DNA of 64,000 nt, taken from the NCBI RefSeq assembly GCF_000221045.1, contig NC_015856.1, forward strand, positions 310,001 to 374,000, read 5' to 3'. This document shows positions 1,223 to 21,714 of this stretch, piece by piece. This stretch comes from Collimonas fungivorans Ter331. Its GTDB lineage: Bacteria; Pseudomonadota; Gammaproteobacteria; Burkholderiales; Burkholderiaceae_D. The translations under genes and the position numbers were made by a program. How positions within the stretch are numbered: position 1 is the first letter of the stretch; every line of letters starts with the position of its first letter. The notes beneath the pieces are model-generated. The model saw only the letters and a program-made list of their open reading frames with translations, made no database searches and was not told the origin of the DNA.

Positions 1223-4200
1223 TCAGGGCTGGAGCGACGCCAGTTCCCCTTCCAGCTTTGCCGGCTGCAACGCCGTATTCAAGGCATGCGCAAAAACCTC
1301 GATGTGCGGTGAAATCATCATCGACTGGTGCGTCCCCGGCACCGGCACCAGGCGCAACAGCATTTCCGGCACCACGGCGCCCCAGCCGCGCAAAGGCTCG
1401 TTGACGGTATCGCCCACCGCGCTGTAGAAATGCACCGGAACCCCGATCGGCTGCGCCGCATAGTCGCCGTAGGCGCGGATGATGGTGCGGCTGTTTTCCA
1501 TCAGCTGCAGCAAGCCCTGCAAGGAGAAACCGGACGGGAACAAGCCGTTGCGCCTGGCCATCTGCAGCAGGGTGGGGACATCGATATCCGGCGCCGCCGC
1601 CTTCAGCTTTTCCATCGCCGCTTTCAGCACAGGATCATTGCCGGCAGCCGCTTCCAGCAACGTCAGCATCAGCTGTTTGTCGCCCAGTTTCCATTCGCGT
1701 TCGTCGTCGTCGCCGATTGAGCAGTGAGTATCGAACAACCCGATGAATTCCACCTCCTGGCCTTCGTTGATGAACTGCTGCGCAACCTCATAGGCTAGCG
1801 CGCCGCCGAACGACCAACCGGCCAGCCGGTAAGGCCCGTGCGGCTGCACCGCCCGCACCAGCCCCACCATGCGCGCCGCCATGCTTTGCACGGTCGACAG
1901 TTGCGGCTGATCCAGCGGCACCGGCGGCAGGCCGTATACCGGGATGTCGGGGTTGATATGGGTGGCCAGCATATGCGCGTAAATCAGCAAGCCGGAACCT
2001 TCGTGCATCAGGAACAAGGGGCGCTGGCGGCCGCCGGCACGGATCAGCACGGCGCAATTTTCCGTCTCCAGCGGATTCAGCTGTGCGATATGCTCGGCCA
2101 GCCCGGCGATGGTCGGATAGGTAAACACATCGCTGGCTGAAACCCGCACGCCTTTTTGCTTGAGCAGGTTCACTACCTGCAGAATCGACAGGGAATGCCC
2201 GCCCAGCGAGAAGAAATTGGCGTGGCGGCCGACGCGCTCGATCTGCAGCAGCTCCGACCAGATCCCGGCCAGGACGTTTTCGATTTCTCCTTCCGGCGCC
2301 GCATAACCGCCAACCGCATAAGCATCCGCCGCGGGCGCGGGCAGGTGCTTGCGGTCCAGCTTGCCGTTCGGCGTCAGCGGCAGCGCGGCCAGCATCACGT
2401 ACGCCGCCGGCACCATGTACTCCGGCATATTGACGCTCAAATGGGAGCGCAAGGTTTCGGCGCCGGCTTCTTCCGCATCGGCATTTTCATTGGCGACAAT
2501 ATAGGCAACCAGGCGTTTGTCGCCAGGATTGTCTTCGCGTGCAATCACCACCGCCTCGCGCACCGCCGGATGGGCAACCAGCTTTGCTTCGATCTCGCCC
2601 AGCTCGATGCGGAAACCGCGGATCTTGACCTGGAAGTCATTGCGGCCCAGGTGCACCAGGTTGCCGTCGGCCTGCCAGCGCGCCAGGTCGCCGGTGCGGT
2701 ACAGCAGCGCGCCAGGCCGTCCGGAGAAGCGGTCTGGAACGAACCTTTCTTCAGTCAGCTCGGCCCGGTTCAGGTAGCCGCATGCGACGCCGGCGCCGCC
2801 GATATATATTTCGCCTGTCACGCCGACCGGCACCGGTTCGCCATGGATGTCCAGCAAGTACACCTGGGTGTTGGCGATCGGCCGGCCTATCGGTATGGTC
2901 GCCTGGCTAGCGTCGACCGCCGCGATTTCATAAGTGGTTGCGTAGGTGGTGGTTTCGGTCGGTCCGTAGCAGTGGATCAGGTGCTCGGGTTTGCCGGCTG
3001 CCAGCACGCGCGCAAAAGCCGCCGGGTCGCAGCGTTCGCCGCCGGTCAGCAGATAACGCAGCTTGCCGAATGCCTCCGGCACGATTGCCGCGCATTGATT
3101 GAACACGGCCGTGGTGATGAACAGCGCGGTGACGCCTTGGCGGTCCAGCGCATCGGCGAAACGCAGCGGATCGAGGAATACATCCTTGTCGATCACGACG
3201 ACGCGTCCGCCATTGAGCAAGGCGCCCCAGATTTCCATGGTCGAGGCGTCGAAGGCAGGATTGGCGGCGAAGGCGATGCGGTCGCTGGCGTCGAATGCGG
3301 CGTAGCCGTTCTCCAGCACCAGGCGCTTGATGCCGCGCTGCGGCACCATCACGCCTTTGGGCTGTCCGGTCGAACCCGAGGTGTACATGATGTAGGCGAT
3401 TGCCTCATCGTCACCGGCCGGCGCCAGGTTGTCCGCTGCATATGCCGTTCCCGTGGCGTCATCCAGGTTGATCCTGGCGAGCGCGGCCAGCGCCGGCCAG
3501 CTGGCGCCGGCCAGCGTCAGCACGAAGCCGGCGCCGCTGTCGCCTGCCATGAAGATCTTGCGTTCGTCGGGCAAAGCCGGATCTATCGGCACATAGGCGG
3601 CGCCGCACTTGAGAATCGCCAGTTCGGCGACGATCAGCTGCGACGAGCGCTCAAGCTGCAATACCAACCGGTCGCCCGGCTTGACGCCCAGCTCGTGCAG
3701 ATGGTGCGCCAGCCGGTTGGCGCGGCGGTTGAGCTCGGCATAACTGAGCTGCTCGGCGCCATGGACAACCGCGACCGCTTGCGGCGTGCGCGCCGCCTGT
3801 GCTTCGAACAGCTGCGGCAGCGCTGCCTGTGGATTGTCGGCCTCGGTGGCATTCCACGTCGTTATTATCCGGCGGCGTTCGTCGGCGCTCAGGATCGCAA
3901 GGCGCGCGATTTGCTGCGTATCGTCCTCGACCATTGCTGCCAGCAGGCGCTGCCAATATCCCAGGTAACGCTCCACGGTGCTGCGTTCGAACAGTGCCGT
4001 CGCATATTCCAGGACGCCGGCAATCGTGTCGCCCGATTCGCCCAGCGACAAGGTCAGGTCGAATTTCGCCGTCACCTGCTTGAACGGCAGCTGCGTCAAT
4101 TCCAGGCCGGCCAGGCTCAACCTGCCTTGCGGCGCATTCTGCCAAGCGAACATTACCTGGAACAAGGGGCTATGAGCCATGCTGCGCAACGGGTGCGTAT

Positions 4201-7200
4201 GCTCGACCACCTGCTCGAAAGGAATTTCCTGGTGTTGCTGCGCCGCCAGCGATTGCTGCCTGACGTGGGTCAGCAGCGTTGCCACCGTGGCATGCTCAGG
4301 CAGGTGGATCCGCAGCGCCAGCGTATTGACAAAGAAACCGATCAATCCTTCCACTTCCTGCTGGTTGCGGTTTGCGGTCGGGGTGCCGATGACAACGTCG
4401 TCCTGCCCGGCCAGCCGGCCCAGCAGCAGGGCCCAGCTGCTCAGCAGCGTCATGTGCAGGGTGGTGCCGTGGCGCTGGCTCAACGCCTTGAGTTTTTTCG
4501 CCAGGGTGCCGTCCAGTACGGTGTCTACCCATGCGCCGGCATAGTCTTGCTGCGGCGGACGCTGGTGATCGGTCGGCAGTTCCAGCAAGGTCGGCGCGCC
4601 TGCCAGGCTTTCTGTCCAGTACGCCGTATGCTGTGCCAGCACCGTCCCGCTCATCCAGCTGCGCTGCCATGCCGCGTAGTCCGGATATTGCACCGCCAGG
4701 GCCGGCAACGGATCGTGTTCTCCTTGCCGGTAGGCGTTATAGAGCGCGCTGATTTCATTGAGCAGCACGCCGATCGACCAGCCGTCCGCAACGATATGGT
4801 GCATCGTGATCAGCAGCGTGTGCTGGGTGCGCGTCTCCTGCAGCAGGCGGCCGCGGATCAGCGGGCCCCGGGCCAGGTCGAACGGCGCGGCGGCTTCTTC
4901 GGCGAACAGGCGCTCCCTTTCGGCGTCGCGTTCGGGATGGTGCCGCAAATCGTGTTCCAGCAGCTGGAAATGACTGACCTCTGCCGCCGCCACGTGTTGT
5001 ACCGCGCCGTGGCCTGGCTGCGGGATGAAACTGGTGCGCAGCGCTTCGTGGCGGAACACCAGCCGCTCCAGCGCCTGGACCAGGGCTACCCGGTCCAGTT
5101 CGCCGCGCAGCTGCAAGCCCAGCGGAACATGGTACGCCTGGCGCACTTCGCCCATCTGCTCCAGGAACCACAAACGCTGCTGTGCAAACGACAGCAGTTC
5201 CCGTTCGGCGCCGACGGTGGCCGTCATCGGCGGCCGGATGCTGGCATCGCTGGCGGACAATGTGGCGGCAAAGTCGGCGAAAAACGGATGCATGAACAGC
5301 GTGTTCAATGCCACTTCGACACGGAATGCCTGCCTCAGGCGTGAAATCATCTGCACCGCCAGCAGCGAATGGCCGCCCAGCGAGAAGAAGTTGTCGTGGC
5401 GGCCGATGCGTTCGATCTGCAGCAGTTCCGACCAGATGGCCGCCAGCGCGATTTCGGTTTCTCCTTCCGGCGCGGCGTAGGCGCCGGCGGCGTAGGCATC
5501 GCCGTCGGGCGCCGGCAGGTTCTTGCGGTCGAGCTTGCCGTTCGGCGTCAATGGCAGCGCCGCCAGCGTGACATACGCTGCCGGCACCATGTACTCGGGC
5601 ATGCCGGCGCTCAAATGAGCACGCAGGGTCTCGGCATCGACTTCCTGGTTGACGACAATGTAGGCCACCAGCCGTTTGTCGCCGGGACTATCTTCGCGCG
5701 CAATCACCACCGCTTCGCGGATCGCCGGATGAGTAGCCAGTTGCGTTTCGATTTCACCCAGCTCGATGCGGAAACCGCGGATCTTGACCTGGAAGTCGTT
5801 GCGTCCCAGGTAGACCAGGTTGCCGTCCGCCTGCCAACGGGCCAGGTCGCCGGTCTTGTACAGGCGCGCGCCGGGCAGCGGTGAAAAAGGATCGGGTACA
5901 AAACGCTGTTCGGTCAGTTCCGGCCGGTTCAGATAACCGCGCGCTACCTGCACGCCACCGATGTGCAATTCGCCGGCGACCCCGACAGGCGTCGGTTCGC
6001 CCACGGCATCGAGGATGTAGACGCTGGTATTGGCGACAGGTTTGCCGATAGGGATAGCGGCCGGGGTTTCTCCTGCGACGCAAGCCCAGGCGGTGACATC
6101 CACCGCAGCTTCGGTAGGGCCGTACAGGTTGTGCAGCTGGGCGCGCGGCAACAGTGCATGGAAACTGCGCACCAGCGATGCCGGCAACGCCTCGCCGCTG
6201 CACATGACGCGGACGATGCTGGCGCAGCCGGCCGCTTCGTCATGCGCGGCAAACACCTGCAGCATGGATGGCACGAAATGCAGCGTGGTGACGCCGGCGG
6301 TACGGATGACCTCGTTCAGGTAGCGTGGATCCTTATGGCCGTCGGGTTTGGCCATCACCAGCTTTGCGCCCACCATCAGCGGCCAGAAGAATTCCCACAC
6401 CGAGACGTCGAAGCTGAAAGGCGTTTTTTGCAGCACCACGTCATGCTGCTCCAGGCCGTAAGCCTGCTGCATCCACAGCATGCGGTTGACCACCCCGCGA
6501 TGCTCGTTCATGACGCCCTTCGGCTTTCCGGTCGAACCCGAGGTGTAGATCACGTACGCCAGGTCCGATGGTAACAGATGGCTGCTGGCGGGATTGTGGT
6601 CCGGATAGGCATCCCAGTTTGGCGCTTGCAGGTCCAGCACCGGCAAGCTCGATGGAATCGTCGCCCTGACCTGTTGCCAGCTGCCTTCGATTCCTGCCTG
6701 GGTCAGCACCACGCGCGGGGCGCTGTCGCTGAGCATGTAGGCCAGACGGTCTGCCGGATAAGCCGGATCCAGCGGCACATAGGCTGCACCCGCTTTCAGC
6801 ACGCCGAGCAAGGCGACCACCATGGACACGCTGCGTTCGGCGCAGATCGCCACCCGGTCGTCCGGCTGGACGCCCAGTTCGCGCAGGTAGTGCGCCAGCT
6901 GGTTGGCGCGGCGGTTGAGTTCCGCATAGCTCAGCTGTTCGCTGCCCTGTTCCACCGCCACCGCTTGCGGCGTCCGCTCGGCCTGCGCTTCGCACAACTG
7001 GTGCAGCAGGGATTCGCGCTCCGGATAAATCACCTGGGTCACATTCCAACCGGTCACCAGCTGCCGGCGTTCGGCGGCGCCCAGCATCGGCAGGCGCGCT
7101 ATCTGCTGCGCATCGTCGGCGACCATCGCTTCCAGCAGCCGATGCCAGTAGCCCAGGTAACGTTCCACTGTCTTTGGTTCAAACAAGGCCGTCGCATATT

Positions 7201-10200
7201 CCAGCGAGCCGGCAAGTTCATCGCCCGCTTCGCCCAGCGACAAGGTCAGGTCGAATTTTGCCGTTACCTGCCTGACTGCCAGCGGCGTCAATTCCAGGCC
7301 TGACAGCTGCAGCTTGCCTTGCGGCGCGTTTTGCCAGGAAAACATCACCTGGAACAACGGGCTGTGCGCCATGCTGCGCACCGGACGGGCATGTTCCACC
7401 ACCTGTTCGAACGGCACTTCCTGGTGCTGCTGCGCCGCCAGGGATTGCTGTTTGACATGCGCCAGCAGCGAGGCCACCGTTGCGTTCTCCGGCAGGCTGA
7501 TGCGCAGCGCCAGCGTGTTGACGAAGAAGCCGATCAGGTTCTCGACTTCGTGCTGGTTGCGGTTCGCCGCCGGCGTGCCGACGACGACGTCGTCCTGTCC
7601 TGCCAGTCGGCCCAGCAGCAGGGCCCAGCTGCTCAGCAGCGTCATGTACAGGGTGCTGCCGTGACGCTGGCTCAAGGCCTTCAGTTTCCGCGTCAGCGCG
7701 GCGTCCAGCCTGGTGTCGATGCTGGCGCCGGCGTAGTCTTGCTGTGGCGGACGCGGATGATCGGTCGGCAGTTCCAGCAAGGTCGGCGCACCGGCCAGGC
7801 TCTGTTTCCAGTAGGCGGTCTGCTGTTCCAGCACCGCTCCGCTCATCCAGCGCCGTTGCCATGCGGCGTAATCGGGATATTGCACGGCCAGGGCTGGCAA
7901 GGGATCGTGTGCGCCTTGCCGGTAAGCGTTGTAGAGCGCGCTGATTTCATCCAGCAGCAGGCCGGTCGACCAGCCGTCCGACACGATGTGATGGGCGGTG
8001 ATCAGCAGCGTGTGCTGGGTCCGTGTCTCTTGCAGCAGCAGGCCGCGGATCAGCGGACCCTGGGCCAGGTCGAAGGGCCTTGCCGCTTCTTCCGCAAGCA
8101 GGCGTTCCAGCTCGGCCTCGCGCTCCGGATGATGGCGCAAGTCGTGTTCCAGCAGCTGGAAATGACTGACGTCTGCCGCTGCGACGCGCTGGATTGCGCC
8201 GTGGCCTTCCCTGGCGACAAAACTGGTGCGCAGCGCTTCGTGGCGGAACACCAGCCGCTCCAGCGCCTGGACCAGGGCTACCCGGTCGAGTTCGCCGCGC
8301 AGCTGCAAGCCGAGCGGGATATGGTAGGCATGGCTGACGCCGCCCATCTGCTCCAGGAACCACAAGCGTTGCTGCGCGAACGACAGCAGTTCACGTTCCG
8401 CGCCGCTGGCCGCCGTCAGCGGCGGCCGGACGCTGTGGCCGCTGGCCAGCAGTTCCGCGCAAAAATCGAGCAGCGCGGGAAACTCAAACAAGGCGCTGAT
8501 CGCCACCTCGATATTGAAGGATTGCCTGATGCGCGAAATCATCTGTACCGCCACCAGCGAGTGGCCGCCCAGGGTGAAGAAATTATCGTAGCGGCCGATG
8601 CGTTCGACCCGCAGCAGTTGCGACCAGATCGCCGCCAGCGCGGTTTCCGACTCGCCTTCCGGCGCGACATAACCGCTCGCCGCATACGCTTCCGTTTCAG
8701 GGGCCGGCAAGTGCTTGCGGTCCAGCTTGCCGTTGGCTGTCAGCGGCAACGCCGCCAGCGCGACATAGGCGGCCGGCACCATGTACTCGGGCATGCCGGC
8801 GCTCAAATGCGCACGCAGCGCCGCGGCGTCGATCTCTTCGGCGGTCACGATGTAGGCAACCAGGCGCTTGTCTCCGGGACTATCCTCGCGCACGATCACT
8901 ACCGCCTCGCGCACCGCAGGATGCGCCGCCAGCCTTGCTTCGATTTCGCCCAGTTCAATGCGGAAACCGCGGAGCTTGACCTGGAAGTCGTTGCGGCCCA
9001 GGTGCACCAGGTTACCGTCTTGCTGCCAGCGCGCCAGGTCGCCGGTACGGTACAGCAACGCGCCAGGGCGGCCGCTGAAACGGTCGGCAATAAAGCGCTC
9101 TGCCGTCAATTCGTCGCGATTCAGGTAGCCGCGCGCGATGCCGCTGCCGCCGATATACATCTCTCCTGCCACGCCGACTGGCACAGGCTCGCCTTGCGCG
9201 TCCAGCAGATATATTTGGGTGCTGGCGATCGGCCGGCCGATCGGTATGGTCGCCTGTGCAGCATCGACCGCGGTAACTTCATACGTGGTCGCATAAGCGG
9301 TCGCTTCGGTCGGTCCGTAGCAATGGATCAGGTGCCGCGGCCCGCCGGCTTCCAGCACGCGCGCAAACGCAGCCGGATCGCAGCGTTCGCCGCCGGTCAT
9401 CAGGAAGCGCAAGCGGCTGAATGCCTCCGGCATGATCGCCGCGCATTGATTGAACACCGCCGTTGTCAGGAACAGCGTGGTGATGCCTTGCTGTTCGAGC
9501 GCGCCGGCAAGATGCAGCGGATCCAGGAATATTTCTTTGTCGATCACCACGATCCGACCGCCATTCAGCAGGGCGCCCCAGATTTCCACGGTCGAGGCAT
9601 CGAAAGCCGGATTGGCGGCGAAGGCGATGCGGTCGCTGGCGTCGAAGGCAGCGTAGCCGTTCTCCAGCACCAGACGCTTGATGCCGCGCTGGGGCACCAG
9701 CACGCCTTTCGGCTGCCCGGTGGAACCTGAGGTGTACATGATGTAGGCAATCGTCTCGTCGTCGCCGCCCGGCGTCAGGTTGTCGGCGGCATAAGTGCCG
9801 GCGGCGATCTGGTCCAGGTCGATGCGCACCAGCGCGGCCCGCGCCGGCCAGCGGTTGCCGCTGAGCGTCAACAATACGCTGGCGCCGCTGTCGTTTGCCA
9901 TGAAAATCTTGCGTTCTTCGGGCAAGCTGGCATCTATCGGCAGATAGGCGGCGCCGCACTTGAGAACCGCCAGCATCGCCACAATCAGCGGCAAGGAGCG
10001 CTCAAGCTGCAGCACTATCCGGTCGTTGCGCTTGACGCCCAGTTGCCGCAGGTGATGCGCCAGCTGGTTGGCCTGGCGATTGAGTTCGGCGTAACTCAGC
10101 TGCGCCGGCCCGTGCACTACTGCCACTGCCTGCGGCGCCTTGGCCGCCTGCGCCTCGAACAGCTGCGGCAGCAGTGGTGCGGGATGCTGCGCCTGGGTTG

Positions 10201-13200
10201 CGTTCCATTTGCTGACCACCTGATGCCGCTCTTCTGCCGGCATGACGTCGATGCTATTGACGGCGCGTTCCGGCTCCGCCTCCAGCGCTGTCACCAACCC
10301 TTCCAGAGCGGCCGCCATGAAACCGCACACGCGCTGTGCGCCGACGGTGGGCGTAACCTGCGCGGTCAGCGCAAAATCCGATCCGAGGTCGTCGATCGAC
10401 AGGCTCAAGGGGTAGTTGCTGCGCTCTTCGCCCGAGATCTGGGTGATGCCCTGCCAGATCGCCTGCTCGGCCGGGGAGGGTTCGCCCAATACGCTGTGAC
10501 GATAATTGAGCAAGGCCGAGAACAAGGGCTGCGGCGCGGCAATCGCACTGGCGCGCTGGGCCAGCGCCAGCGAGGCATGCTCGTGTTCCATCAGCTGCGC
10601 CAGCAAGGCGTGCGTATGCCGCACGCTGGCTGCCGCTCCCTGGGTATCGATGTTGAGCCGCAGCGGCAGCGTATTGACCAGCAAGCCCATCATGCGGTCG
10701 GCGCCTTCGCCGCCTTGCATACGGCCGAACAGCACGGTGCCGAACACCACCTCGCTGCGGTTGGCGACCCGCGCCAGCACTTGCGCCCACGCCAGGTGGC
10801 ACAGGCTGGCTGCACTGACGCCCAGCTGCCGCGCCTGCTGGCGCAAGCGTCGAGACAAGGTCGCGCTGAGGCGCACATGGCCTTCTTCCAGGCCGCCGCC
10901 GTCGCCATGCACTTCCAGCAAGCCGAACGGCGCCGTCGGTTCATCGACATCGGCCAGCATCTGACGGAAGAAGGTTTCATGCACTTCGGTATTTCCACCC
11001 AGCCTGGCTTGCGCCACATAATTGCGGAATTGCAGCGGCACCGGCAGCTGTGCTTCCTGGCCCTGCAGATGGGCTGCGATCTCGGCGTGGACCACTTCCA
11101 GCGTAGTGTGGTCGCTGACCAGGTGATGCATCAAGGTCAGCAGTACCCAGCGCCGCTGTACGGCATCGTAGGCGAAACTGGTCCGCATCAGCGGCGCCTG
11201 CGTCAGGTCGAGGCGGGTGTGGCGCGGGTCGAAACGGGCGCGCAGCTGGCGCGCGACGTCGCCGTCGGCCGGATCGAGTATCAGTTCTTCCTGCACCAGC
11301 GGCGCCGAGCGCCAGACCACCTGCAGCGGTTCCGGCACGCCTTCCCAGACGATTGCGGTGCGCAGCACGTCGTGCCGCTGTATCACGCCTTGCAAGGCTG
11401 CCAGGTATGCTTCCAGCCGCTGCCGGGTATCGAAACCGGTCAGTCCCACCAGCAGGTAGGGATCGCCTTCCTTGGCCATCAGGTGGTGGAACAGTATGCC
11501 TTCCTGCAACGGCGCCAGCGGATAGATATCCTGCACATTGGCGGCGCCGCCTGGAACATTGCCGACAACGCTGGCGATTTCAGCGTCGTTCAGCGTCACC
11601 ATCGGCAGCATTTCCGGCGTGATGGTTTCGCATCCGGATGGAATCAGGTTGGCGGGGACGTTGACCAGGCGGCTTTCTTCGCCGATAGACGCCGCCAGTC
11701 CGGCCAGGGTCGGGGAGGAAAACAGGGCGCGTACTTCGGCTTGCAAGCCTTGCTGGCGCATTCTTTCCATCAGGGTCACGGCGAGCAGCGAATGGCCGCC
11801 CAGCGAGAAGAAGTTGTCGTGGCGGCCGATGCGTTCGATCTGCAGCAGGGCCGACCAGATGGCCGCCAGCGCAATCTCTGTCTCGCCTTGCGGCGCCTCA
11901 TAGCCGCTTACTGCATAGGCGTCGCTGTCCGGCGCCGGCAGGTTCTTGCGGTCCAGCTTGCCGTTGGTCGTCAGCGGCAAGGATTCCAGCGTGACATAGG
12001 CTGCCGGCACCATGTAGTCCGGTATGTTGAGGCTGAGGTGCGCGCGCAGCGTCTCGGCGTCGACTTCCTGATTGACCACAATGTAGGCTACCAGGCGCTT
12101 GTCGCCGGGACTGTCTTCGCGCGCGATCACCACCGCTTCGCGGATGGCCGGATGAGAAGCCAGTTGCGTTTCGATTTCCCCCAGTTCGATGCGGAAACCG
12201 CGGATCTTGACCTGGAAGTCGTTGCGTCCCAGGTAGACCAGGCTGCCGTCCGCCTGCCAGCGCGCCAGGTCGCCGGTCTTGTACAGGCGGGCATCCGGCT
12301 CTTGCGAGAACGGATCGGGAATGAAGCGCTGCTCGGTCAGTTCCGGCCGGTTCAGGTAGCCGCGCGCCACGCCGGCGCCGCCGATGTACAGCTCGCCCGG
12401 CACGCCTACCGGCGCCGGTTCGCCCTGGACATCCAGCAGATATACGGTGAGATCGGGTATGCGCACGCCGATCGGACTGACGCCGCCGCGTGCGGTATCG
12501 GCCGCTTCGATCGGCTGGTAAGTGACGTGCACCGTGGTTTCGGTGATGCCGTACATATTGATCAGGCGCGTGGCGCAGCCCTGGTTTTGCGCGTACCACG
12601 GGACCAGGGTGGCCGGTTCCAGCGCTTCGCCGCCGAAAATCACATGCCGCAGCTGATGCGTTTTGGTGCTGCCGCCCTGGGCTGCTATCAGCTGGCGGAA
12701 GGCGCTCGGCGTCTGGTTAAGGATGGTTACCTTCTCGCGGCATAACAGGCGGTAGAAATCTTCCGCCGAACGTGCGGTCTCCAGCGGCACTACCACCAGG
12801 CGGCCGCCATGCAGCAGCGCGCCCCAGATCTCCCATACCGAGAAGTCGAAGGCAAACGAGTGGAACAGGCTCCAGACGTCTTCTGCGCCGAAATGGAACC
12901 AGGCGTCGGTCGCCGCAAACAGGCGCGTCACGTTGCGATGTTCGACCATCACGCCCTTCGGCGCGCCGGTCGAGCCCGAGGTGTAGATCACGTACGCCAT
13001 GTCTGACGGCGCCAGATGGCTGCTGTCCGGATTGTAGTCCGGATAGGCGTTCCAGGCTGGCGTCCGCAGGTCCAGCACCGGCAGGCCGGCGGCAATCGTT
13101 GCTCTTACTTGTTGCCAGCCGCCTTCGATGCCGGCCTGCGTCAATACCACCCGCGGTGCGCTGTCATTCAGCATGTGCGCCAGCCGTTCCGCCGGATAGG

Positions 13201-16200
13201 CCGGATCCAGCGGCACATAGGCGGCACCTGCTTTCAGCACTGCCAGCAAGCCGACCACCATGGACAAGCCGCGCTCGACGCAGATCGCCACCCGGTCGTC
13301 CGGCTGGACGCCCAGTTCGCGCAGGTAATGCGCCAGCCGGTTGGCCTGGCGGTTGAGTTGGTCGTAGCTGAGCTGCTCGGCGCCATGCACCACGGCCGCT
13401 GCCTGCGGCGTGTTTGCCGCCTGCGCTTCGAACAGCTGCGGCAGCAATTGCCCAGGATAGCTAGGCTGGTCTGCGTTCCAGCTGCGGACGATCTGATGGC
13501 GCTCAGTCGCGGGCAGCACATCGATGCTGTTGATAGAGCGCTCCGGTGTCGTTTCCAGCGCCGCCACCAGGCATTCCAGCGCGGTCGTCATGAAACTGCA
13601 TACGCGCTGCGCGCCGACGGTTGACGTGACTTGCGCGGTCAAGGCGAAACCAGATCCCAGGTCGTCGATCGACAGGCTCAAGGGGTAGTTGCTGCGTTCT
13701 TCTCCCGAAATCCGGGTGATGCCTTGCCAGGCCGCCTGTTCGGCTGGCGCTGTCTCATTCGACATGCTGTGGCGGTAGTTGAGCAAGGCCGAGAACAAGG
13801 GCTGCGGCGCGGCAATCGCACTGGCGCGCTGGGCCAGCGCCAGCGAGGCATGCTCGTGTTCCATCAGTTCCACCAGCAAGGCATGGGTGCGCTGCACGCT
13901 TGCCGCCGCGCCTTGCGCATCGATCTTGATCCGCAACGGCAGCGTATTGATCAGTAAGCCCATCATGCGGTCGGCGCCTTCGCCGCCCTGCATGCGGCCG
14001 AACAGCACGGTGCCGAACACCACGTCGCTGCGGTTGGCGACCCGCGCCAGCACTTGCGCCCACGCCAGGTGGCACAGGCTGGCTGCACTGACGCCCAGTT
14101 GCCGCGCCTGTTGCCGCAGGCGCTGCGCCAGCGCGGCATCGAGCTGCATGTGCTTTTCTTCCAGTCCATCGCCGTCGCCATGCACCTCCAGCAAACCGAA
14201 CGGCGCGGTTGTTTCATCGACATCGCCCAGCATCTGGCGGAAGAAGGTTTCGTGTGTTTCGGTACTGGCGCCGAGCCGCGCCTGCGCCACGTAATTGCGG
14301 AACTGCAGGGGGACCGGCAACTGCTCCTCCTGCCCCTGCAAATATGCCGCGATCTCGGCGCGGACCACTTCCAGCGTAGTGTGATCGTTCACCAGGTGAT
14401 GGATCAAGGTCAGCAGCACCCAGCGCTGCTGACTGGCATCGTAGGCGAAACTGGTCCGCATCAGCGGCGCCTGCGTCAGGTCGAGGCGGGTATGGCGCGG
14501 ATCGAAGCGGGCCCGCAGCTGGCGTGCGACGTCGCCGTCGGCCGGATCGAGTATCAGCTCTTCCTGCACCAGCGGCGCCGAGCGCCAGACCACCTGCAGC
14601 GGTTCCGGCACGCCTTCCCAGACGATGGCGGTGCGCAGCACGTCGTGCCGCTGGATCACGGCTTGCAAAGCTGCCAGATAAGAATCGAGTCGTGCCCGGG
14701 TGTCGAAACCGGTCAGTCCCACCAGCAGGTAGGGATCGCCTTCTTTCGCCATCAAGTGGTGGAACAGGATGCCTTCCTGCAACGGCGCCAGCGGATAAAT
14801 ATCCTGTACATTGGCGGCGCCGCCCGGAACGTTGCCGACAACGCTGGCGATTTCAGCGTCGTTCAGCGTCACCATCGGCAGCATCGCCGGTGTGATGAGT
14901 TCACATCCTTCCGGAATCAGGCTGGCCGGCACCGCAACCAGCCGGCTTTCCGCGCCGATTGCCGCGGCCAGTCCGGCCAGGGTCGGGGAGGAAAACAGGG
15001 CGCGCACTTCGGCTTGCAGACCTTGCTGGCGCATCTTTTCCATCAGGGTCACGGCCAGCAGCGAATGGCCGCCCAGTGAGAAGAAGTTGTCGTGGCGGCC
15101 GATGGGTTCGATCTGCAGCAGTTCCGACCAGATGGCCGCCAGGGCGGTTTCGGTTTCTCCCTCTGGCGCGACATAAGCTCGCACGGCATAGGCATCGCCC
15201 TCGGGCGCCGGCAGGTTCTTGCGGTCCAGCTTGCCGTTCGGCGTCAATGGCAGCGCTGGCAGCGCGACGTAGGCTGCCGGCACCATATAGTCCGGCACAT
15301 TGAGGCTGAGGTGCGCACGCAGCGTCTCGGCGTCGACTTCTTGATTGACCACGATGTAGGCTACCAGGCGCTTGTCGCCGGGAGTATCTTCGCGTGCGAT
15401 CACTATCGCTTCGCGGATCGCCGGATGGGCCGCCAACTGGGTTTCGATTTCGCCCAGCTCGATGCGGAAGCCGCGGATCTTGACCTGGAAATCGTTGCGG
15501 CCCAGGTAGACCAGGTTGCCGTCCGCCTGCCAGCGCGCCAGGTCGCCGGTCTTGTACAGGCGTGCGCCAGGCAGCGATGAGAATGGGTCGGGCACAAAAC
15601 GCTGTTCGGTCAGTTCGGCCTGGTTCAGATAACCGCGCGCCACGCCGGCGCCGCCGATGTACAACTCGCCCGCCACGCCAACCGGCACCGGCTGGCCCAG
15701 GCTGTCCAGCAGATACGCCTGGGTGTTGGCAATCGGCCGGCCGATATGCAGGACTTCGTCCGCCGCGGTCAGGCGGCCGGAAGTGGCCACCACCGTGGCC
15801 TCGGTCGGGCCGTAATTGTTGACCAGCGAGAACGGCAAGCCTGCCTGCGGAGCGTGGCGCAGGCGATCGCCGCCGGTCAGCAAATGGCGCAGGTGCGGAT
15901 TGACGATGCCGTTGCTCAAGGCATATTCGGCCATCGGTGTCGGCAGGAAGCTGACGTCCAGCGGCTGCTCGCGCCACCATGCCAGGACGGTGGCGGCATC
16001 GTCGTCCTGCAGCGGCAGCAGCAGGGTGGCGCCGACGCTCAGGGTCGGCCAGATTTCCCACACGGCGGCATCGAACCCTAGCCGCGCCACGCAGGAAGTG
16101 CGGTGGCCCGCCTGCACATCGAATGCTGCGTTATGCCAATGCACCAGGTTGTTCAGGTTCCGGTGTTCGATCATCACACCCTTCGGCGTGCCGGTCGAGC

Positions 16201-18100
16201 CCGAGGTGTAGATCACATAAGCCAGGTGGGATGGCGCGAGCTGGCTGCTATCCGGATTGTGCTCCGGATATTCGCTCCAGGCTGGCGCCTGCAGGTCCAG
16301 CAGCGGCAGGCTGGCAGGGATTGTCGCCAGCACCTGCTGCCACTCGCCTTCGATGCCGGCCTGCGTCAATACCACCCGTGGCGCGCTGTCGTTCAGCATG
16401 TGCGCCAGCCGTTCCGCCGGATACGCCGGATCCAGCGGCACATAGGCGGCACCTGCTTTCAGCACTGCCAGCAAGCCGACCACCATGGACAAGCCGCGCT
16501 CGACGCAGATCGCCACCCGGTCGTCCGGCTGGACGCCCAGTTCGCGCAGGTAATGCGCCAGCCGGTTGGCCTGGCGGTTGAGTTGGTCGTAGCTGAGCTG
16601 CTCGGCGCCATGCACCACGGCCGCTGCCTGCGGCGTGTTTGCCGCCTGCGCCTCGAACAGCTGCGGCAGCAAGGACGATGGATAATCGGCTTGGGTTGCA
16701 TTCCAGGCCGTGACGATCTGATGGCGCTCCGCCTCGGCGAGCAACGGCAGCCGGTCGATCATGCAATCGGCGCCGCCGACGACGGCAGCCATCAGCAAGG
16801 CCATGCGGCTTTGTATCCTGGCGACTTCATCGCGTGTGAAATGGCGTGTGTTGTAATCGAACACCACCAGCACATCCTGGTCCCGGTGGAAATCCCGCAA
16901 CGACATGGCCAGCGGCGTCTGCTCGAAGCCATGGTCCAGCTTGACGCCGCTGGCCATGCCGTCGCCCATGGGGAAATCGGTATCGAAAACTTCATACGAC
17001 AGCGAGACGTCGAACAACTGGCGATAACCGTTTTGCACGACATTGTGGGCGCGGTTGATTTCCACGATAGGGAAGCGCTGGTGGCGGTAGCAGCGGCGCA
17101 GTTCTTTTGCGACGGCCGCCATCGCCTGGCTGAACGGTTGCTGGCGGTCCAGCGCGATCGCCACCGGAATGATCGACGAGAACATGCCGAAGGTGTTTTT
17201 TTCGCGGGCGTTGCTGCGGTTATGGATAGGCACGCCGATGACGACCTCGTCCAGGTCGTTGGCGCGCGCGAAATAAACGCTGATCAGGGCCAGCATGAAA
17301 TCCGAGGCGGAAAAGCCATGGGCTGCCGCAAACGCTGTCATCTGCTCGAACAGGGGGCGTTCAATAGACCAGTAGACCTGTTCGCTGGGCGCCAGTGTCT
17401 TGGCTGAAAGCGCGCTGTCGCCGGGGACCAGCCGCGCAGGCAGTTGCGTGAAACGCTGGCGCCAGAATTCCTTGTCGAGCGCAAACCGGGCGGAGGAGAA
17501 GTAATCCTGATCCTTGGCGATGAAGTCCAGGTAGGAGGGTGCTGCTTCGGCGACTGTCTCATCCAGTCCGAGCAGCCGGTTGTAGGTGCTGGCGATGCTG
17601 GCGAAACTCTGCGAGGTGCTGATGCCGTCGGCGACCAGGTGGTGGTAGCACAGCAGCCAGTAATAGCGCGCAGGACCCACGCGTATCAGTTCCATTTTCC
17701 ATAGCAGCCCGCCGTGCAGGTCGAACGGCTGCTTGAACACTTGCTCCATGCGCTGCCGGGCGCGCAGGTCGCCATCGGCTTCGGCGGAAAAATCCAGCAC
17801 CGGCAAGTCAAAATCCACCGACGGCAACACTTGTTGCCGCGCCACGCCGCCGGCCTTGACCAGCACCAGCCGGGCAGCATCGTTCTCCATCGCGAAATGG
17901 CGGATGGCTTGCTGCAGTACGAGCGGATCGATGGCGGCATCGATTTTTGCCGCCAGGCCGATGTTGTAATAGGGGATGCCGGGATTGAGCAACTGGTCCA
18001 GCCAGACCACTTGCTGTACGGAAGAAAGTTCATGGACGGACGTTTGGGCGTCGTTGGCCAGCGCGCCTGGTGCTGCAGATATTTCAACCGGATTCGACAT
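1223..18100 (-). CDS. Five-module non-ribosomal peptide synthetase with starter C domain and thioesterase (lipopeptide type)
   Basis: A 5625-residue synthetase. The ATG at 18100 follows AGAGG and is preferred to an upstream in-frame start at 18178. Approximate domains: starter C (20-450, HHLVADG near 155); A1 (476-970); carrier PCP1 (LGGHSL near 1008); dual E/C (about 1100-1540, HHLMAKEGD near 1117, HHLVNDH near 1236); A2 (1552-2060); PCP2 (2100); second dual E/C (HHLMAKEGD near 2207); A3 (2643-3140); PCP3 (3177); C4 (HHIVSDG near 3372); A4 (3700-4205); PCP4 (4243); C5 (HHIVADG near 4437); A5 (4763-5260); PCP5 (5300); TE (5340-5625, GWSFGG near 5429, GTHQS as His motif). Specificity codes read by eye: A1 DAW(F/L)LGNVV, Leu; A2 DFWNIGMVH, Thr; A3 DAVFMGCAY, unassigned; A4 DVWHMSLVD, Ser; A5 DAMFLGCTY, unassigned. 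The dual E/C domains imply D-Leu and D-Thr, and the starter C domain implies N-acylation. No MbtH or phosphopantetheinyl transferase gene is nearby. Product identity is inference. Confidence 0.95.
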   Translation of the reverse strand: MSNPVEISAAPGALANDAQTSVHELSSVQQVVWLDQLLNPGIPYYNIGLAAKIDAAIDPLVLQQAIRHFAMENDAARLVLVKAGGVARQQVLPSVDFDLPVLDFSAEADGDLRARQRMEQVFKQPFDLHGGLLWKMELIRVGPARYYWLLCYHHLVADGISTSQSFASIASTYNRLLGLDETVAEAAPSYLDFIAKDQDYFSSARFALDKEFWRQRFTQLPARLVPGDSALSAKTLAPSEQVYWSIERPLFEQMTAFAAAHGFSASDFMLALISVYFARANDLDEVVIGVPIHNRSNAREKNTFGMFSSIIPVAIALDRQQPFSQAMAAVAKELRRCYRHQRFPIVEINRAHNVVQNGYRQLFDVSLSYEVFDTDFPMGDGMASGVKLDHGFEQTPLAMSLRDFHRDQDVLVVFDYNTRHFTRDEVARIQSRMALLMAAVVGGADCMIDRLPLLAEAERHQIVTAWNATQADYPSSLLPQLFEAQAANTPQAAAVVHGAEQLSYDQLNRQANRLAHYLRELGVQPDDRVAICVERGLSMVVGLLAVLKAGAAYVPLDPAYPAERLAHMLNDSAPRVVLTQAGIEGEWQQVLATIPASLPLLDLQAPAWSEYPEHNPDSSQLAPSHLAYVIYTSGSTGTPKGVMIEHRNLNNLVHWHNAAFDVQAGHRTSCVARLGFDAAVWEIWPTLSVGATLLLPLQDDDAATVLAWWREQPLDVSFLPTPMAEYALSNGIVNPHLRHLLTGGDRLRHAPQAGLPFSLVNNYGPTEATVVATSGRLTAADEVLHIGRPIANTQAYLLDSLGQPVPVGVAGELYIGGAGVARGYLNQAELTEQRFVPDPFSSLPGARLYKTGDLARWQADGNLVYLGRNDFQVKIRGFRIELGEIETQLAAHPAIREAIVIAREDTPGDKRLVAYIVVNQEVDAETLRAHLSLNVPDYMVPAAYVALPALPLTPNGKLDRKNLPAPEGDAYAVRAYVAPEGETETALAAIWSELLQIEPIGRHDNFFSLGGHSLLAVTLMEKMRQQGLQAEVRALFSSPTLAGLAAAIGAESRLVAVPASLIPEGCELITPAMLPMVTLNDAEIASVVGNVPGGAANVQDIYPLAPLQEGILFHHLMAKEGDPYLLVGLTGFDTRARLDSYLAALQAVIQRHDVLRTAIVWEGVPEPLQVVWRSAPLVQEELILDPADGDVARQLRARFDPRHTRLDLTQAPLMRTSFAYDASQQRWVLLTLIHHLVNDHTTLEVVRAEIAAYLQGQEEQLPVPLQFRNYVAQARLGASTETHETFFRQMLGDVDETTAPFGLLEVHGDGDGLEEKHMQLDAALAQRLRQQARQLGVSAASLCHLAWAQVLARVANRSDVVFGTVLFGRMQGGEGADRMMGLLINTLPLRIKIDAQGAAASVQRTHALLVELMEHEHASLALAQRASAIAAPQPLFSALLNYRHSMSNETAPAEQAAWQGITRISGEERSNYPLSLSIDDLGSGFALTAQVTSTVGAQRVCSFMTTALECLVAALETTPERSINSIDVLPATERHQIVRSWNADQPSYPGQLLPQLFEAQAANTPQAAAVVHGAEQLSYDQLNRQANRLAHYLRELGVQPDDRVAICVERGLSMVVGLLAVLKAGAAYVPLDPAYPAERLAHMLNDSAPRVVLTQAGIEGGWQQVRATIAAGLPVLDLRTPAWNAYPDYNPDSSHLAPSDMAYVIYTSGSTGAPKGVMVEHRNVTRLFAATDAWFHFGAEDVWSLFHSFAFDFSVWEIWGALLHGGRLVVVPLETARSAEDFYRLLCREKVTILNQTPSAFRQLIAAQGGSTKTHQLRHVIFGGEALEPATLVPWYAQNQGCATRLINMYGITETTVHVTYQPIEAADTARGGVSPIGVRIPDLTVYLLDVQGEPAPVGVPGELYIGGAGVARGYLNRPELTEQRFIPDPFSQEPDARLYKTGDLARWQADGSLVYLGRNDFQVKIRGFRIELGEIETQLASHPAIREAVVIAREDSPGDKRLVAYIVVNQEVDAETLRAHLSLNIPDYMVPAAYVTLESLPLTTNGKLDRKNLPAPDSDAYAVSGYEAPQGETEIALAAIWSALLQIERIGRHDNFFSLGGHSLLAVTLMERMRQQGLQAEVRALFSSPTLAGLAASIGEESRLVNVPANLIPSGCETITPEMLPMVTLNDAEIASVVGNVPGGAANVQDIYPLAPLQEGILFHHLMAKEGDPYLLVGLTGFDTRQRLEAYLAALQGVIQRHDVLRTAIVWEGVPEPLQVVWRSAPLVQEELILDPADGDVARQLRARFDPRHTRLDLTQAPLMRTSFAYDAVQRRWVLLTLMHHLVSDHTTLEVVHAEIAAHLQGQEAQLPVPLQFRNYVAQARLGGNTEVHETFFRQMLADVDEPTAPFGLLEVHGDGGGLEEGHVRLSATLSRRLRQQARQLGVSAASLCHLAWAQVLARVANRSEVVFGTVLFGRMQGGEGADRMMGLLVNTLPLRLNIDTQGAAASVRHTHALLAQLMEHEHASLALAQRASAIAAPQPLFSALLNYRHSVLGEPSPAEQAIWQGITQISGEERSNYPLSLSIDDLGSDFALTAQVTPTVGAQRVCGFMAAALEGLVTALEAEPERAVNSIDVMPAEERHQVVSKWNATQAQHPAPLLPQLFEAQAAKAPQAVAVVHGPAQLSYAELNRQANQLAHHLRQLGVKRNDRIVLQLERSLPLIVAMLAVLKCGAAYLPIDASLPEERKIFMANDSGASVLLTLSGNRWPARAALVRIDLDQIAAGTYAADNLTPGGDDETIAYIMYTSGSTGQPKGVLVPQRGIKRLVLENGYAAFDASDRIAFAANPAFDASTVEIWGALLNGGRIVVIDKEIFLDPLHLAGALEQQGITTLFLTTAVFNQCAAIMPEAFSRLRFLMTGGERCDPAAFARVLEAGGPRHLIHCYGPTEATAYATTYEVTAVDAAQATIPIGRPIASTQIYLLDAQGEPVPVGVAGEMYIGGSGIARGYLNRDELTAERFIADRFSGRPGALLYRTGDLARWQQDGNLVHLGRNDFQVKLRGFRIELGEIEARLAAHPAVREAVVIVREDSPGDKRLVAYIVTAEEIDAAALRAHLSAGMPEYMVPAAYVALAALPLTANGKLDRKHLPAPETEAYAASGYVAPEGESETALAAIWSQLLRVERIGRYDNFFTLGGHSLVAVQMISRIRQSFNIEVAISALFEFPALLDFCAELLASGHSVRPPLTAASGAERELLSFAQQRLWFLEQMGGVSHAYHIPLGLQLRGELDRVALVQALERLVFRHEALRTSFVAREGHGAIQRVAAADVSHFQLLEHDLRHHPEREAELERLLAEEAARPFDLAQGPLIRGLLLQETRTQHTLLITAHHIVSDGWSTGLLLDEISALYNAYRQGAHDPLPALAVQYPDYAAWQRRWMSGAVLEQQTAYWKQSLAGAPTLLELPTDHPRPPQQDYAGASIDTRLDAALTRKLKALSQRHGSTLYMTLLSSWALLLGRLAGQDDVVVGTPAANRNQHEVENLIGFFVNTLALRISLPENATVASLLAHVKQQSLAAQQHQEVPFEQVVEHARPVRSMAHSPLFQVMFSWQNAPQGKLQLSGLELTPLAVRQVTAKFDLTLSLGEAGDELAGSLEYATALFEPKTVERYLGYWHRLLEAMVADDAQQIARLPMLGAAERRQLVTGWNVTQVIYPERESLLHQLCEAQAERTPQAVAVEQGSEQLSYAELNRRANQLAHYLRELGVQPDDRVAICAERSVSMVVALLGVLKAGAAYVPLDPAYPADRLAYMLSDSAPRVVLTQAGIEGSWQQVRATIPSSLPVLDLQAPNWDAYPDHNPASSHLLPSDLAYVIYTSGSTGKPKGVMNEHRGVVNRMLWMQQAYGLEQHDVVLQKTPFSFDVSVWEFFWPLMVGAKLVMAKPDGHKDPRYLNEVIRTAGVTTLHFVPSMLQVFAAHDEAAGCASIVRVMCSGEALPASLVRSFHALLPRAQLHNLYGPTEAAVDVTAWACVAGETPAAIPIGKPVANTSVYILDAVGEPTPVGVAGELHIGGVQVARGYLNRPELTEQRFVPDPFSPLPGARLYKTGDLARWQADGNLVYLGRNDFQVKIRGFRIELGEIETQLATHPAIREAVVIAREDSPGDKRLVAYIVVNQEVDAETLRAHLSAGMPEYMVPAAYVTLAALPLTPNGKLDRKNLPAPDGDAYAAGAYAAPEGETEIALAAIWSELLQIERIGRHDNFFSLGGHSLLAVQMISRLRQAFRVEVALNTLFMHPFFADFAATLSASDASIRPPMTATVGAERELLSFAQQRLWFLEQMGEVRQAYHVPLGLQLRGELDRVALVQALERLVFRHEALRTSFIPQPGHGAVQHVAAAEVSHFQLLEHDLRHHPERDAERERLFAEEAAAPFDLARGPLIRGRLLQETRTQHTLLITMHHIVADGWSIGVLLNEISALYNAYRQGEHDPLPALAVQYPDYAAWQRSWMSGTVLAQHTAYWTESLAGAPTLLELPTDHQRPPQQDYAGAWVDTVLDGTLAKKLKALSQRHGTTLHMTLLSSWALLLGRLAGQDDVVIGTPTANRNQQEVEGLIGFFVNTLALRIHLPEHATVATLLTHVRQQSLAAQQHQEIPFEQVVEHTHPLRSMAHSPLFQVMFAWQNAPQGRLSLAGLELTQLPFKQVTAKFDLTLSLGESGDTIAGVLEYATALFERSTVERYLGYWQRLLAAMVEDDTQQIARLAILSADERRRIITTWNATEADNPQAALPQLFEAQAARTPQAVAVVHGAEQLSYAELNRRANRLAHHLHELGVKPGDRLVLQLERSSQLIVAELAILKCGAAYVPIDPALPDERKIFMAGDSGAGFVLTLAGASWPALAALARINLDDATGTAYAADNLAPAGDDEAIAYIMYTSGSTGQPKGVMVPQRGIKRLVLENGYAAFDASDRIAFAANPAFDASTMEIWGALLNGGRVVVIDKDVFLDPLRFADALDRQGVTALFITTAVFNQCAAIVPEAFGKLRYLLTGGERCDPAAFARVLAAGKPEHLIHCYGPTETTTYATTYEIAAVDASQATIPIGRPIANTQVYLLDIHGEPVPVGVTGEIYIGGAGVACGYLNRAELTEERFVPDRFSGRPGALLYRTGDLARWQADGNLVHLGRNDFQVKIRGFRIELGEIEAKLVAHPAVREAVVIAREDNPGDKRLVAYIVANENADAEEAGAETLRSHLSVNMPEYMVPAAYVMLAALPLTPNGKLDRKHLPAPAADAYAVGGYAAPEGEIENVLAGIWSELLQIERVGRHANFFSLGGHSLSILQVVNLLKQKGVRVSASDVFTYPTIAGLAEHIAQLNPLETENCAVLIRAGGRQRPLFLMHEGSGLLIYAHMLATHINPDIPVYGLPPVPLDQPQLSTVQSMAARMVGLVRAVQPHGPYRLAGWSFGGALAYEVAQQFINEGQEVEFIGLFDTHCSIGDDDEREWKLGDKQLMLTLLEAAAGNDPVLKAAMEKLKAAAPDIDVPTLLQMARRNGLFPSGFSLQGLLQLMENSRTIIRAYGDYAAQPIGVPVHFYSAVGDTVNEPLRGWGAVVPEMLLRLVPVPGTHQSMMISPHIEVFAHALNTALQPAKLEGELASLQP
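13200..13426 (-). repeat. NRPS internal repeat, copy in A2 (identical to 16425-16651)
   Basis: This 227-bp block at the start of adenylation domain A2 matches 16425-16651 in A1 base for base, as far as I can compare by eye. The first differences are immediately outside at both ends. Silent positions are conserved too, which points to recent recombination or gene conversion rather than protein-level constraint. Confidence 0.85.
16425..16651 (-). repeat. NRPS internal repeat, copy in A1 (identical to 13200-13426)
   Basis: Partner of the block at 13200-13426. It encodes the A-domain segment from the region of the DQLNRQANRLAHYLRELGV stretch to the LDPAYPAERL stretch. The dual E/C domains near 11100-11500 and 14400-14760, and A3 versus A5, are also very similar but carry scattered differences. 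Confidence 0.85.
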
Positions 18101-18653: not shown

Positions 18654-19922
18654 ATGACCGAGATGACCGAAGAACTAGCAGCAGAAACCGCGGTTCCCGC
18701 CAGCCAGGCAGGGTTGCCGCCGATACTCATGCATCGCGGTTTCCTGCTGCTGATGCTGGGTTGTTTCGCTGCATTCCTGGGGGAGCAGCTGACCACGGTG
18801 GCATTGCCCTGGCTGGTGCTGAAACTGAGCAATGACAGCCTGGCCCTGGGCACCGCCGTGGCGGTGATGGCGCTGCCGAAAATCCTGTTCCTGGTGGTGG
18901 CCGGCGTGCTGGTCGACCGGCACTCGCCGCGCACCGTGCTGATATGCGCCTCGGCCGGCGGCATGGTGTTGCTGGCAGGAGTCGGCGTGATGCTGATGTA
19001 TGACTTGCTGGCGCTGTGGATGATGTATCTGTTTGCCTGCGGGATGGGACTGGCGGGCGCTTTTGCGATTCCGGCCAGGGTCGCCATACTGCCGAGGCTG
19101 ATCGACCCGCGGCAATTGCAGCCGGCTAACGCAATATTGATGGGCATCACCCAGGTCTCGCTGCTGGGCGGGCCGCTGCTGGCCGGATTGCTGGCGGCGT
19201 CGACGGATGGACTGGGATTGGTTTTCTTGCTGAATGCGTGCTGTTTCCTGATCGCCACAGTCACCGTACCGCGCTTGCAGCCGCGTGCGCAACCGGCGCC
19301 GGAGCATCAGGCGGCGCTGCTTGCCTCCATCGTTCCAGCCGCAAAATGGCTGTGGTCCGACGGCGTGCTGAGGACGCTGATCGGTTACTGGGCAGTCGTC
19401 ACCTTGCTGCTGGCAGGGCCGGTGCAGGTCGGGTTGCCGCTCTGGGTGGATCGCCAGCTGGGCGGCGGCGCCTCGGCGTTCGGGATACTGATTGCCGCCA
19501 ACGGCCTGGGGCAGCTGATCGGCATCGTGTTTTCCGGCCTGCGCGCCCGGAAAGTGGTCCATCTTGGCGTCGCGGTCTGCGTGATCGACGGCCTGGCCGG
19601 CCTGGCCGTGTTCGGCATGGGATTCACCCATGTCCTGGAAGTGGGCCTGGCGCTGATGCTGGCGGTCGGCGTGGGCGCCGGCTACGTGCAGGTAGGATTG
19701 TTCACCTGGATACAGCGCCGGATCCCGACCGAGCTGCACGGCCGGGTGCTCAGCATACTGATGCTGGTCCTGATCACGATTGCGCCGCTGTCGGCGCTGC
19801 TTGCGGGTTACCTGATCCTGTACGTGACGCCGTCCCGGTTGTTCATGTACGGCGGCCTGCTGCTGTCGCTGTTCGCCATGCTCATGCTGCTTCATCCGAA
19901 ACTGAGGAAACTGCGGAACTAG
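18654..19922 (+). CDS. MFS efflux transporter (DHA3/EntS-like), probable exporter of the NRPS product
   Basis: A 422-residue membrane protein with about 12 predicted helices. The first (after RGFLLLMLGCF) carries the GEQLTTVALPWLVLKL pattern usual for MFS_3/DHA3 exporters, followed by the loop 2-3 motif VAGVLVDRHSPRTVL. A related loop, SGLRARKVVHLGV, occurs in the C-terminal half. The start is uncertain: ATG at 18654 gives a normal-length protein with a short cytoplasmic tail, while a GTG at 18534 would add 40 unlikely residues, and neither has a clear ribosome binding site. It is divergent from the NRPS, an arrangement common for siderophore and lipopeptide exporters such as EntS. Export of the NRPS product is inference from position and family. 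Confidence 0.85.
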   Translation: MTEMTEELAAETAVPASQAGLPPILMHRGFLLLMLGCFAAFLGEQLTTVALPWLVLKLSNDSLALGTAVAVMALPKILFLVVAGVLVDRHSPRTVLICASAGGMVLLAGVGVMLMYDLLALWMMYLFACGMGLAGAFAIPARVAILPRLIDPRQLQPANAILMGITQVSLLGGPLLAGLLAASTDGLGLVFLLNACCFLIATVTVPRLQPRAQPAPEHQAALLASIVPAAKWLWSDGVLRTLIGYWAVVTLLLAGPVQVGLPLWVDRQLGGGASAFGILIAANGLGQLIGIVFSGLRARKVVHLGVAVCVIDGLAGLAVFGMGFTHVLEVGLALMLAVGVGAGYVQVGLFTWIQRRIPTELHGRVLSILMLVLITIAPLSALLAGYLILYVTPSRLFMYGGLLLSLFAMLMLLHPKLRKLRN

Positions 19923-21683: not shown

Positions 21684-21714
21684 CGGCGGTCGACGCTTCC
21701 AAGAAGGAGGGATC

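What the first reader, a model, noticed from the sequence alone, without database searches (positions are those of the whole stretch)
1223..18100. Single-protein NRPS predicted to make an acyl-D-Leu-D-Thr-X-Ser-X lipopentapeptide
Seen: five C-A-PCP modules and a TE on one polypeptide, a starter C domain first, and two C domains (modules 2 and 3) that carry the HH[I/L]xxxxGD motif of dual E/C domains. Known: starter C domains acylate the first residue, and dual E/C domains epimerise the preceding residue. Inferred: N-acyl-D-Leu, D-Thr, X, L-Ser, X, probably released as a lactone through the Thr hydroxyl. A lipopentapeptide from a five-module megaenzyme with a divergent MFS exporter is short compared with most lipopeptides of this lineage and may be undescribed.
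Basis: partly seen in the sequence, partly recalled or inferred. Interest (0 to 1): 0.7.

Follow-up and report, generated by a model that had tools for sequence, protein, structure and literature searches.

The report
Collimonas antifungal lipopentapeptide synthetase, already published
This is a real five-module enzyme that very probably makes a short fatty-acid-tailed peptide in a soil bacterium; the gene was almost certainly already reported in 2015 as making an antifungal 'new lipopeptide', and what remains open is the molecule's exact structure.

Summary
Window 1223-18100 (-) is one 16,878-bp gene for 5,625 aa: five C-A-PCP modules plus one thioesterase, with a divergent MFS transporter gene. 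It is not undescribed. Genome size, a tripropeptin-like NRPS set and the 16.9-kb length match Collimonas fungivorans Ter331, where Song et al. 2015 (PMC4690342) reported a five-residue 'new lipopeptide' (NLP) gene whose disruption reduced or abolished inhibition of two fungi and an oomycete. Both X positions are Ile/Val-type: module 5 has the code that a survey names for Ile, module 3 a relative of it. Prediction: acyl-Leu-Thr-Ile/Val-Ser-Ile/Val. A tree anchored on rhizomide synthetase supports starter, E/C, E/C, LCL, LCL condensation domains. Epimerisation cannot be read from motifs: 74 of 468 assigned Pseudomonas E/C domains are inactive. Release as Thr lactone, fatty-acid lactone or linear acid is undecided. 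New here: the MFS gene sits beside the NRPS in 8 of 8 positive and is missing from 7 of 7 negative Collimonas genomes, and no other AMP-binding or carrier domain lies near.

The parts
1223..18100 (-). five-module NRPS gene (the 'NLP' gene), 5,625 aa
16715..18034 (-). C1, starter-type condensation domain
   Evidence: Pfam; best PDB match RzmA-Cs 7c1k; tree
15230..16657 (-). A1, code DAWFLGNVVK = Leu
14957..15145 (-). PCP1
13490..14809 (-). C2, dual E/C-type (HHLMAKEGD, HHLVNDH)
11957..13432 (-). A2, code DFWNIGMVHK = Thr
11690..11869 (-). PCP2
10220..11536 (-). C3, dual E/C-type (HHLMAKEGD, HHLVSDH)
8726..10159 (-). A3, code DAVFMGCAYK, Ile/Val-type by similarity
   Evidence: orthologues G003 and G011 read as DAMFLGCTY here
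8459..8641 (-). PCP3
7055..8389 (-). C4, LCL-type
5534..6991 (-). A4, code DVWHMSLVDK = Ser
5285..5446 (-). PCP4
3866..5197 (-). C5, LCL-type
2360..3808 (-). A5, code DAMFLGCTYK = code named for Ile
2087..2275 (-). PCP5
1241..2023 (-). single terminal thioesterase (GWSFGG, Ser5430; GTH, His5591); end of domain set by eye
   Evidence: catalytic roles inferred
18654..19922 (+). divergent MFS transporter, probable exporter (start codon chosen by eye)
   Evidence: PF07690; beside the NRPS in 8 of 8 NLP-positive and absent (E 1e-30) from 7 of 7 NLP-negative Collimonas genomes

Best explanation
The gene is the NLP lipopeptide synthetase of Collimonas fungivorans, almost certainly strain Ter331. C1 takes a fatty acyl group from primary metabolism (no separate AMP-binding or carrier-protein gene lies near) and joins it to Leu on PCP1. 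C2 and C3, dual E/C-type domains, may first epimerise Leu1 and Thr2 and then condense them onward. Module 3 adds Ile (or Val), C4 joins Ser, C5 joins Ile (or Val). The single thioesterase releases acyl-Leu-Thr-Ile/Val-Ser-Ile/Val, most likely as a lactone through Thr2 or through a 3-hydroxyl of the fatty acid. The divergent MFS protein exports it. The product suppresses fungi and oomycetes. Shown: domain order, codes, C-domain clades, MFS co-occurrence, and (in the literature) the knockout phenotype. Inferred: residues, stereochemistry, acyl chain, ring closure and export.
For: Domains. Codes identical to ones PMC12283262 names for Leu, Thr, Ser and Ile, and similar for module 3. C-domain tree: C1 in the clade of the biochemically characterised RzmA-Cs (96/97), C2 and C3 in the E/C clade (100/100), C4 and C5 with LCL domains (98/99); best PDB match of C1 is RzmA-Cs. 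MFS gene 8 of 8 versus 0 of 7. Of 31 AMP-binding and 22 PP-binding matches in the genome, five each are in this gene and none of the others lies within 500 kb. Published 16.9-kb five-residue NRPS gene with knockout phenotype in Ter331. Genome 5,186,898 bp in one contig, with five-, one- and two-module NRPS frames like trpA/B/C; Ter331 is the only 5.2-Mb strain of the six in that paper's Table 1.
Against: No product structure or mass was seen. The module 3 code differs from the Ile code at three of ten places. The survey's list of codes does not say 'respectively'; the Ile reading follows its order. E/C clade and motif do not prove epimerisation. The acyl-chain rule from RzmA is uncertain here because C1 is only 30% identical to RzmA-Cs. 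The TrpA C1 row is a long branch in the tree and four rows have unusual composition. Strain identity rests on size, gene set and gene length, not on an accession.
Confidence: 0.87

Rival explanations
1. The peptide is released by hydrolysis as a linear lipopentapeptide acid rather than as a lactone.
For: The related starter-C enzyme HolA makes a linear product while RzmA makes a cyclic one (PMC7804268); the thioesterase sequence alone does not tell.
Against: Possible hydroxyl nucleophiles (Thr2, or a 3-hydroxy acyl group) and the cyclic five-residue products of Serratia swrA and sphA.
Confidence: 0.3
2. Leu1 stays L because the C2 E/C domain is epimerisation-inactive, so the product is acyl-L-Leu-D-aThr-Ile-Ser-Ile.
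For: In PMC10531924 a clade holding the second C domain of entolysin synthetase EtlA together with C domains of xantholysin, viscosin-group, poaeamide and orfamide synthetases is inactive in all cases with known configuration. Whether the present C2 belongs with that clade was not tested.
Against: C2 and C3 are 87% identical and sister in the tree, so both may behave alike; C2 keeps both histidine motifs.
Confidence: 0.35
3. The window comes from a close relative of Ter331, not Ter331 itself, so the published knockout concerns an orthologue.
For: No accession is shown for G000.
Confidence: 0.07

Closest known systems
NLP ('new lipopeptide') gene of Collimonas fungivorans Ter331, Song et al. 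2015, PMC4690342
   Same: 16.9 kb, one NRPS gene, five residues, in C. fungivorans and C. pratensis and not in C. arenae; almost certainly this very gene
   Different: No difference found; the paper's predicted residues are in a figure that is not held, so they could not be compared
SwrA, serrawettin W2 synthetase (Serratia)
   Same: One protein, (C-A-PCP)x5-TE, Leu first (PMC9581180)
   Different: Leu-Ser-Thr-Phe-X, residue order differs; sequence not compared here
SphA, stephensiolide synthetase (Serratia)
   Same: One protein, (C-A-PCP)x5-TE, Thr/Ser/Val/Ile residues
   Different: Thr-Ser-Ser-Val-Ile/Val, no Leu start; sequence not compared here
RzmA, rhizomide synthetase (Mycetohabitans rhizoxinica)
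   Same: Starter C domain, Leu at module 1, partial Thr-type code at module 2, E/C and LCL domains in the same clades
   Different: Seven modules; E/C motifs at C4, C5 and C7, not C2 and C3; C1 only 30% identical
TrpA, tripropeptin-like synthetase of the same genome
   Same: Starter C in the same sub-clade, 42% identical; E/C domains at C2 and C3
   Different: Five modules on one protein of a three-protein, eight-module set; partial codes begin Thr-Pro-Pro (the Pro label is recalled)

Membership tests
Starter-C (lipoinitiating) NRPS | First domain is a C domain of the starter clade | tested here: met
   96/97 support, anchored on RzmA-Cs
Starter-C (lipoinitiating) NRPS | C1 acylates the first residue with a fatty acid | not testable with these tools
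   needs enzyme assay or product
Dual E/C condensation domains (C2, C3) | HH[I/L]xxxxGD plus HHxxxDH motifs and E/C clade | tested here: met
   motif definition from PMC10531924
Dual E/C condensation domains (C2, C3) | Epimerises the preceding residue | not testable with these tools
   motif does not decide
Collimonas NLP lipopeptide synthetase | 16.9-kb single NRPS gene of five residues | tested here: met
   16,878 bp, five modules
Collimonas NLP lipopeptide synthetase | Present in C. fungivorans and C. pratensis, absent from C. arenae | tested here: inconclusive
   8 of 15 Collimonas genomes positive, both 4.7-Mb genomes lack it, but the genomes of that search are unnamed; one C. fungivorans MAG is positive by name
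Rhizomide synthetase (RzmA) | Seven modules, E/C domains at C4, C5 and C7 | tested here: not met
   five modules, E/C at C2 and C3
Serrawettin W2 / stephensiolide synthetases | Residue order Leu-Ser-Thr-Phe-X or Thr-Ser-Ser-Val-Ile/Val | tested here: not met
   codes give Leu-Thr-Ile/Val-Ser-Ile/Val

The most novel reading that the evidence does not exclude
The product is a structurally unreported antifungal cyclic lipopentapeptide, acyl-D-Leu-D-allo-Thr-Ile-Ser-Ile closed through Thr2 into a small four-residue lactone ring, exported by a dedicated MFS pump in place of the MacAB-type exporters usual for Pseudomonas lipopeptides (the last point recalled).
Probability: 0.3. Interest if true: 0.45.

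Novelty: already known. Interest (0 to 1): 0.24.

Why it matters
The gene explains part of the antifungal and anti-oomycete activity of a mycophagous soil bacterium, and a mutant has been made. The refined residue prediction, expected masses and candidate exporter make the missing step, structure elucidation of the product, straightforward to attempt.

Tried and rejected
A full-length match to rhizomide synthetase was considered and rejected: RzmA has seven modules with E/C motifs at other positions, and the C1 domains are 30% identical. PDB matches for C2 did not tell its type (best McyB and PvdL), so the tree was used. Acyl-chain length from the RzmA gate residue: R148 aligns with Thr162 of this protein and Tyr138 is kept as Tyr152. 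Read literally this predicts a medium chain, but tripropeptin's C1 has Ile at that place while tripropeptins carry long chains (recalled), so only a weak statement is made. In one search two identity values of 100.0 (G003 C5, G007 A5) are self-comparisons from missing domains and were dropped; the C4/C5 extraction pattern also missed domains in G003, G007, G008 and G011. NRPS codes were read by motif anchors recalled from the standard PheA scheme, not by alignment to the PheA structure; position 278 was read by eye from the printed stretches and the final Lys taken from the NGKLDR motif (not checked in the orthologues). In the tree the one-module tripropeptin-like protein's C domain sits in the E/C clade although the motif pattern did not find the second motif in it. 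Serrawettin W3 has the same amino-acid composition as one predicted variant (Thr, Ser, Val, Leu, Ile), but no link is claimed. MIBiG and antiSMASH were not available; the other NRPS hits (plasmids, best 49.6% over the first 2,967 aa) were not followed one by one.

Full report
Observation. The minus strand from 18100 to 1223 holds one uninterrupted gene of 16,878 bp, 5,625 aa. A GTG at 18178 in the same frame is a longer possible start, but ATG 18100 has GAGG just upstream. Pfam places Condensation, AMP-binding, AMP-binding C-terminal and PP-binding domains in each of five modules, and one Thioesterase domain at the C-terminus.

Which organism, and is it known? The window lies in G000, a single contig of 5,186,898 bp. 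In the genome-contig scan with C1, a pattern-based search for close relatives, 4 of 46 loci are Collimonas, at 81-95% identity; the next best are Paenibacillus at about 30%. In the plasmid collection the best C1 match is 44.2% (Eleftheria terrae). G000 also holds NRPS frames of 5,380 aa (five C domains), 1,219 aa (one) and 2,855 aa (two). That agrees with trpA, trpB and trpC of tripropeptin as described for C. fungivorans Ter331 and Ter6 in PMC4690342 (abstract, passages and sections 18 and 19 seen). In that paper's Table 1 only Ter331, of six strains, has a 5.2-Mb chromosome. The same paper reports 'another 16.9 kb NRPS gene' in Ter331, Ter6, Ter91 and Ter291, 'composed of five amino acids', with no hits to known lipopeptides, named new lipopeptide (NLP). 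The abstract says disruption had a large effect on antifungal/oomycetal activities; [quoted passage not shown] the same legend says the mutant still inhibited Staphylococcus aureus. C. arenae strains lack the gene yet also suppress fungal and oomycetal pathogens, so other factors act too. Length, module number and genome match, so this is almost certainly the same gene. The product structure is not in the parts read. No later structural report showed up in the listings of searches; three of these listed only the top 20, 12 and 12 of 2,779, 1,260 and 4,860 papers, and the library misses most subscription journals.

Residue prediction. The codes read by motif anchors are A1 DAWFLGNVVK, A2 DFWNIGMVHK, A3 DAVFMGCAYK, A4 DVWHMSLVDK and A5 DAMFLGCTYK (final Lys). 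PMC12283262 (passages and section 9 seen) discusses Leu, Ile and Val domains and gives DAWFLGNVVK, DAMFLGCTYK and DALWIGGTFK as the commonest codes; I read these in that order although the text does not say 'respectively'. It names DFWNIGMVHK in its Thr section, noting that it also takes modified Thr, and DVWHMSLVDK as a Ser/Dha code. A1, A2, A4 and A5 are therefore exact. A3 differs from the Ile code at three positions, but A3 and A5 are 80% identical over the compared stretch, and orthologues G003 and G011 read as DAMFLGCTY at A3. The same paper says Ile codes resemble Val codes more than Leu codes, so Val cannot be excluded.

Condensation domains. A maximum-likelihood tree of 33 C domains (this protein 5, RzmA 7, the tripropeptin-like enzymes 8, an Eleftheria terrae NRPS 7, and six of the 46 loci) separates three groups. 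C1 falls with RzmA-C1, TrpA-C1, Eleftheria-C1 and others (9 rows, 96/97). C2 and C3 fall with RzmA C4, C5 and C7 and the tripropeptin-like E/C domains (9 rows, 100/100). C4 and C5 fall with RzmA C2, C3 and C6 (15 rows, 98/99). The labels E/C and LCL come from motifs; the starter label is anchored on RzmA-Cs, whose activity is published. One Pseudomonas locus, L037, fell in the third group. TrpA-C1 is flagged as a long branch and four rows as compositionally unusual. RzmA identity is secure: the PDB match maps to NC_014718.1 at 99.4%, in the gene of WP_013428324.1, the accession PMC7804268 gives for RzmA. C2 and C3 carry both E/C motifs. However, PMC10531924 (passages seen) aligned 394 active and 74 inactive Pseudomonas E/C domains without a striking difference in the motifs, and describes an inactive clade that holds the second C domain of entolysin synthetase EtlA with C domains of xantholysin, viscosin-group, poaeamide and orfamide synthetases. 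D-Leu1 and D-Thr2 are therefore predictions only.

Acyl chain. No dedicated acyl ligase or carrier protein was found: of 31 AMP-binding and 22 PP-binding matches in G000, five each are this gene's own, and none of the rest lies within 500 kb. In RzmA, residue R148 gates chain length (R gives C2; small residues give C8 to C10) and Y138 limits longer chains (PMC7804268, passages and section 8 seen). The aligned residues here are Thr162 and Tyr152, the same in the six genomes compared. A medium chain would follow, but C1 is closer to TrpA-C1 (42%) and Eleftheria-C1 (43%) than to RzmA (30%), so this is weak.

Exporter. The divergent MFS gene was sought in the 15 Collimonas genomes held. It is present in all 8 genomes that have the NLP C1 domain at 77% or more, each time divergent and within about 0.5 kb, and no match at E 1e-30 was found in the 7 that lack it. 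The chance of this split for independent genomes would be 1 in 6,435; the genomes are related, so the real weight is less.

Spread. In a sample of 116 genomes of the family, 4 had a C1 match at E 1e-80 or better: two Collimonas (this genome and G007) and two genomes of other genera at 45% and 35%; the latter two were not examined further. In one genome, G007, the NRPS frame is split into 4,424- and 1,286-aa open stretches, either a real frameshift or an assembly error.

Judgement. The suggestion that it may be undescribed fails, because the gene and a knockout phenotype are almost certainly published, and five-module single-protein lipopeptide synthetases are an established kind (swrA, sphA; PMC9581180, passages seen). 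What is still open, as far as I could search, is the structure of the molecule.

Noticed in passing
53525-60655 (+): 2,376-aa trimeric autotransporter adhesin of the YadA type: ten stalk stretches, head repeats, extended signal peptide.
   Followed up: no
50488-52956 (+): 822-aa protein with BTAD and AAA_16 domains, regulator-like, shortly before the adhesin gene.
   Followed up: no
21499-23316 (+) and 29131-31677 (-): Serine carboxypeptidase S10 family protein and a prolyl oligopeptidase family protein in the region beyond the MFS gene.
   Followed up: no
L083 (genome G007): The NLP orthologue is split into two open stretches of 4,424 and 1,286 aa in different frames; error or true break not decided.
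   Followed up: partly
window 1223-18100: C2/C3 (87%), C4/C5 (82%) and A3/A5 (80%) are close paralogues inside the protein, as if modules arose by internal duplication; within-strain C2/C3 identity (83-87% in six genomes) is about as high as the identity of the same domain between this strain and its more distant orthologues.
   Followed up: partly
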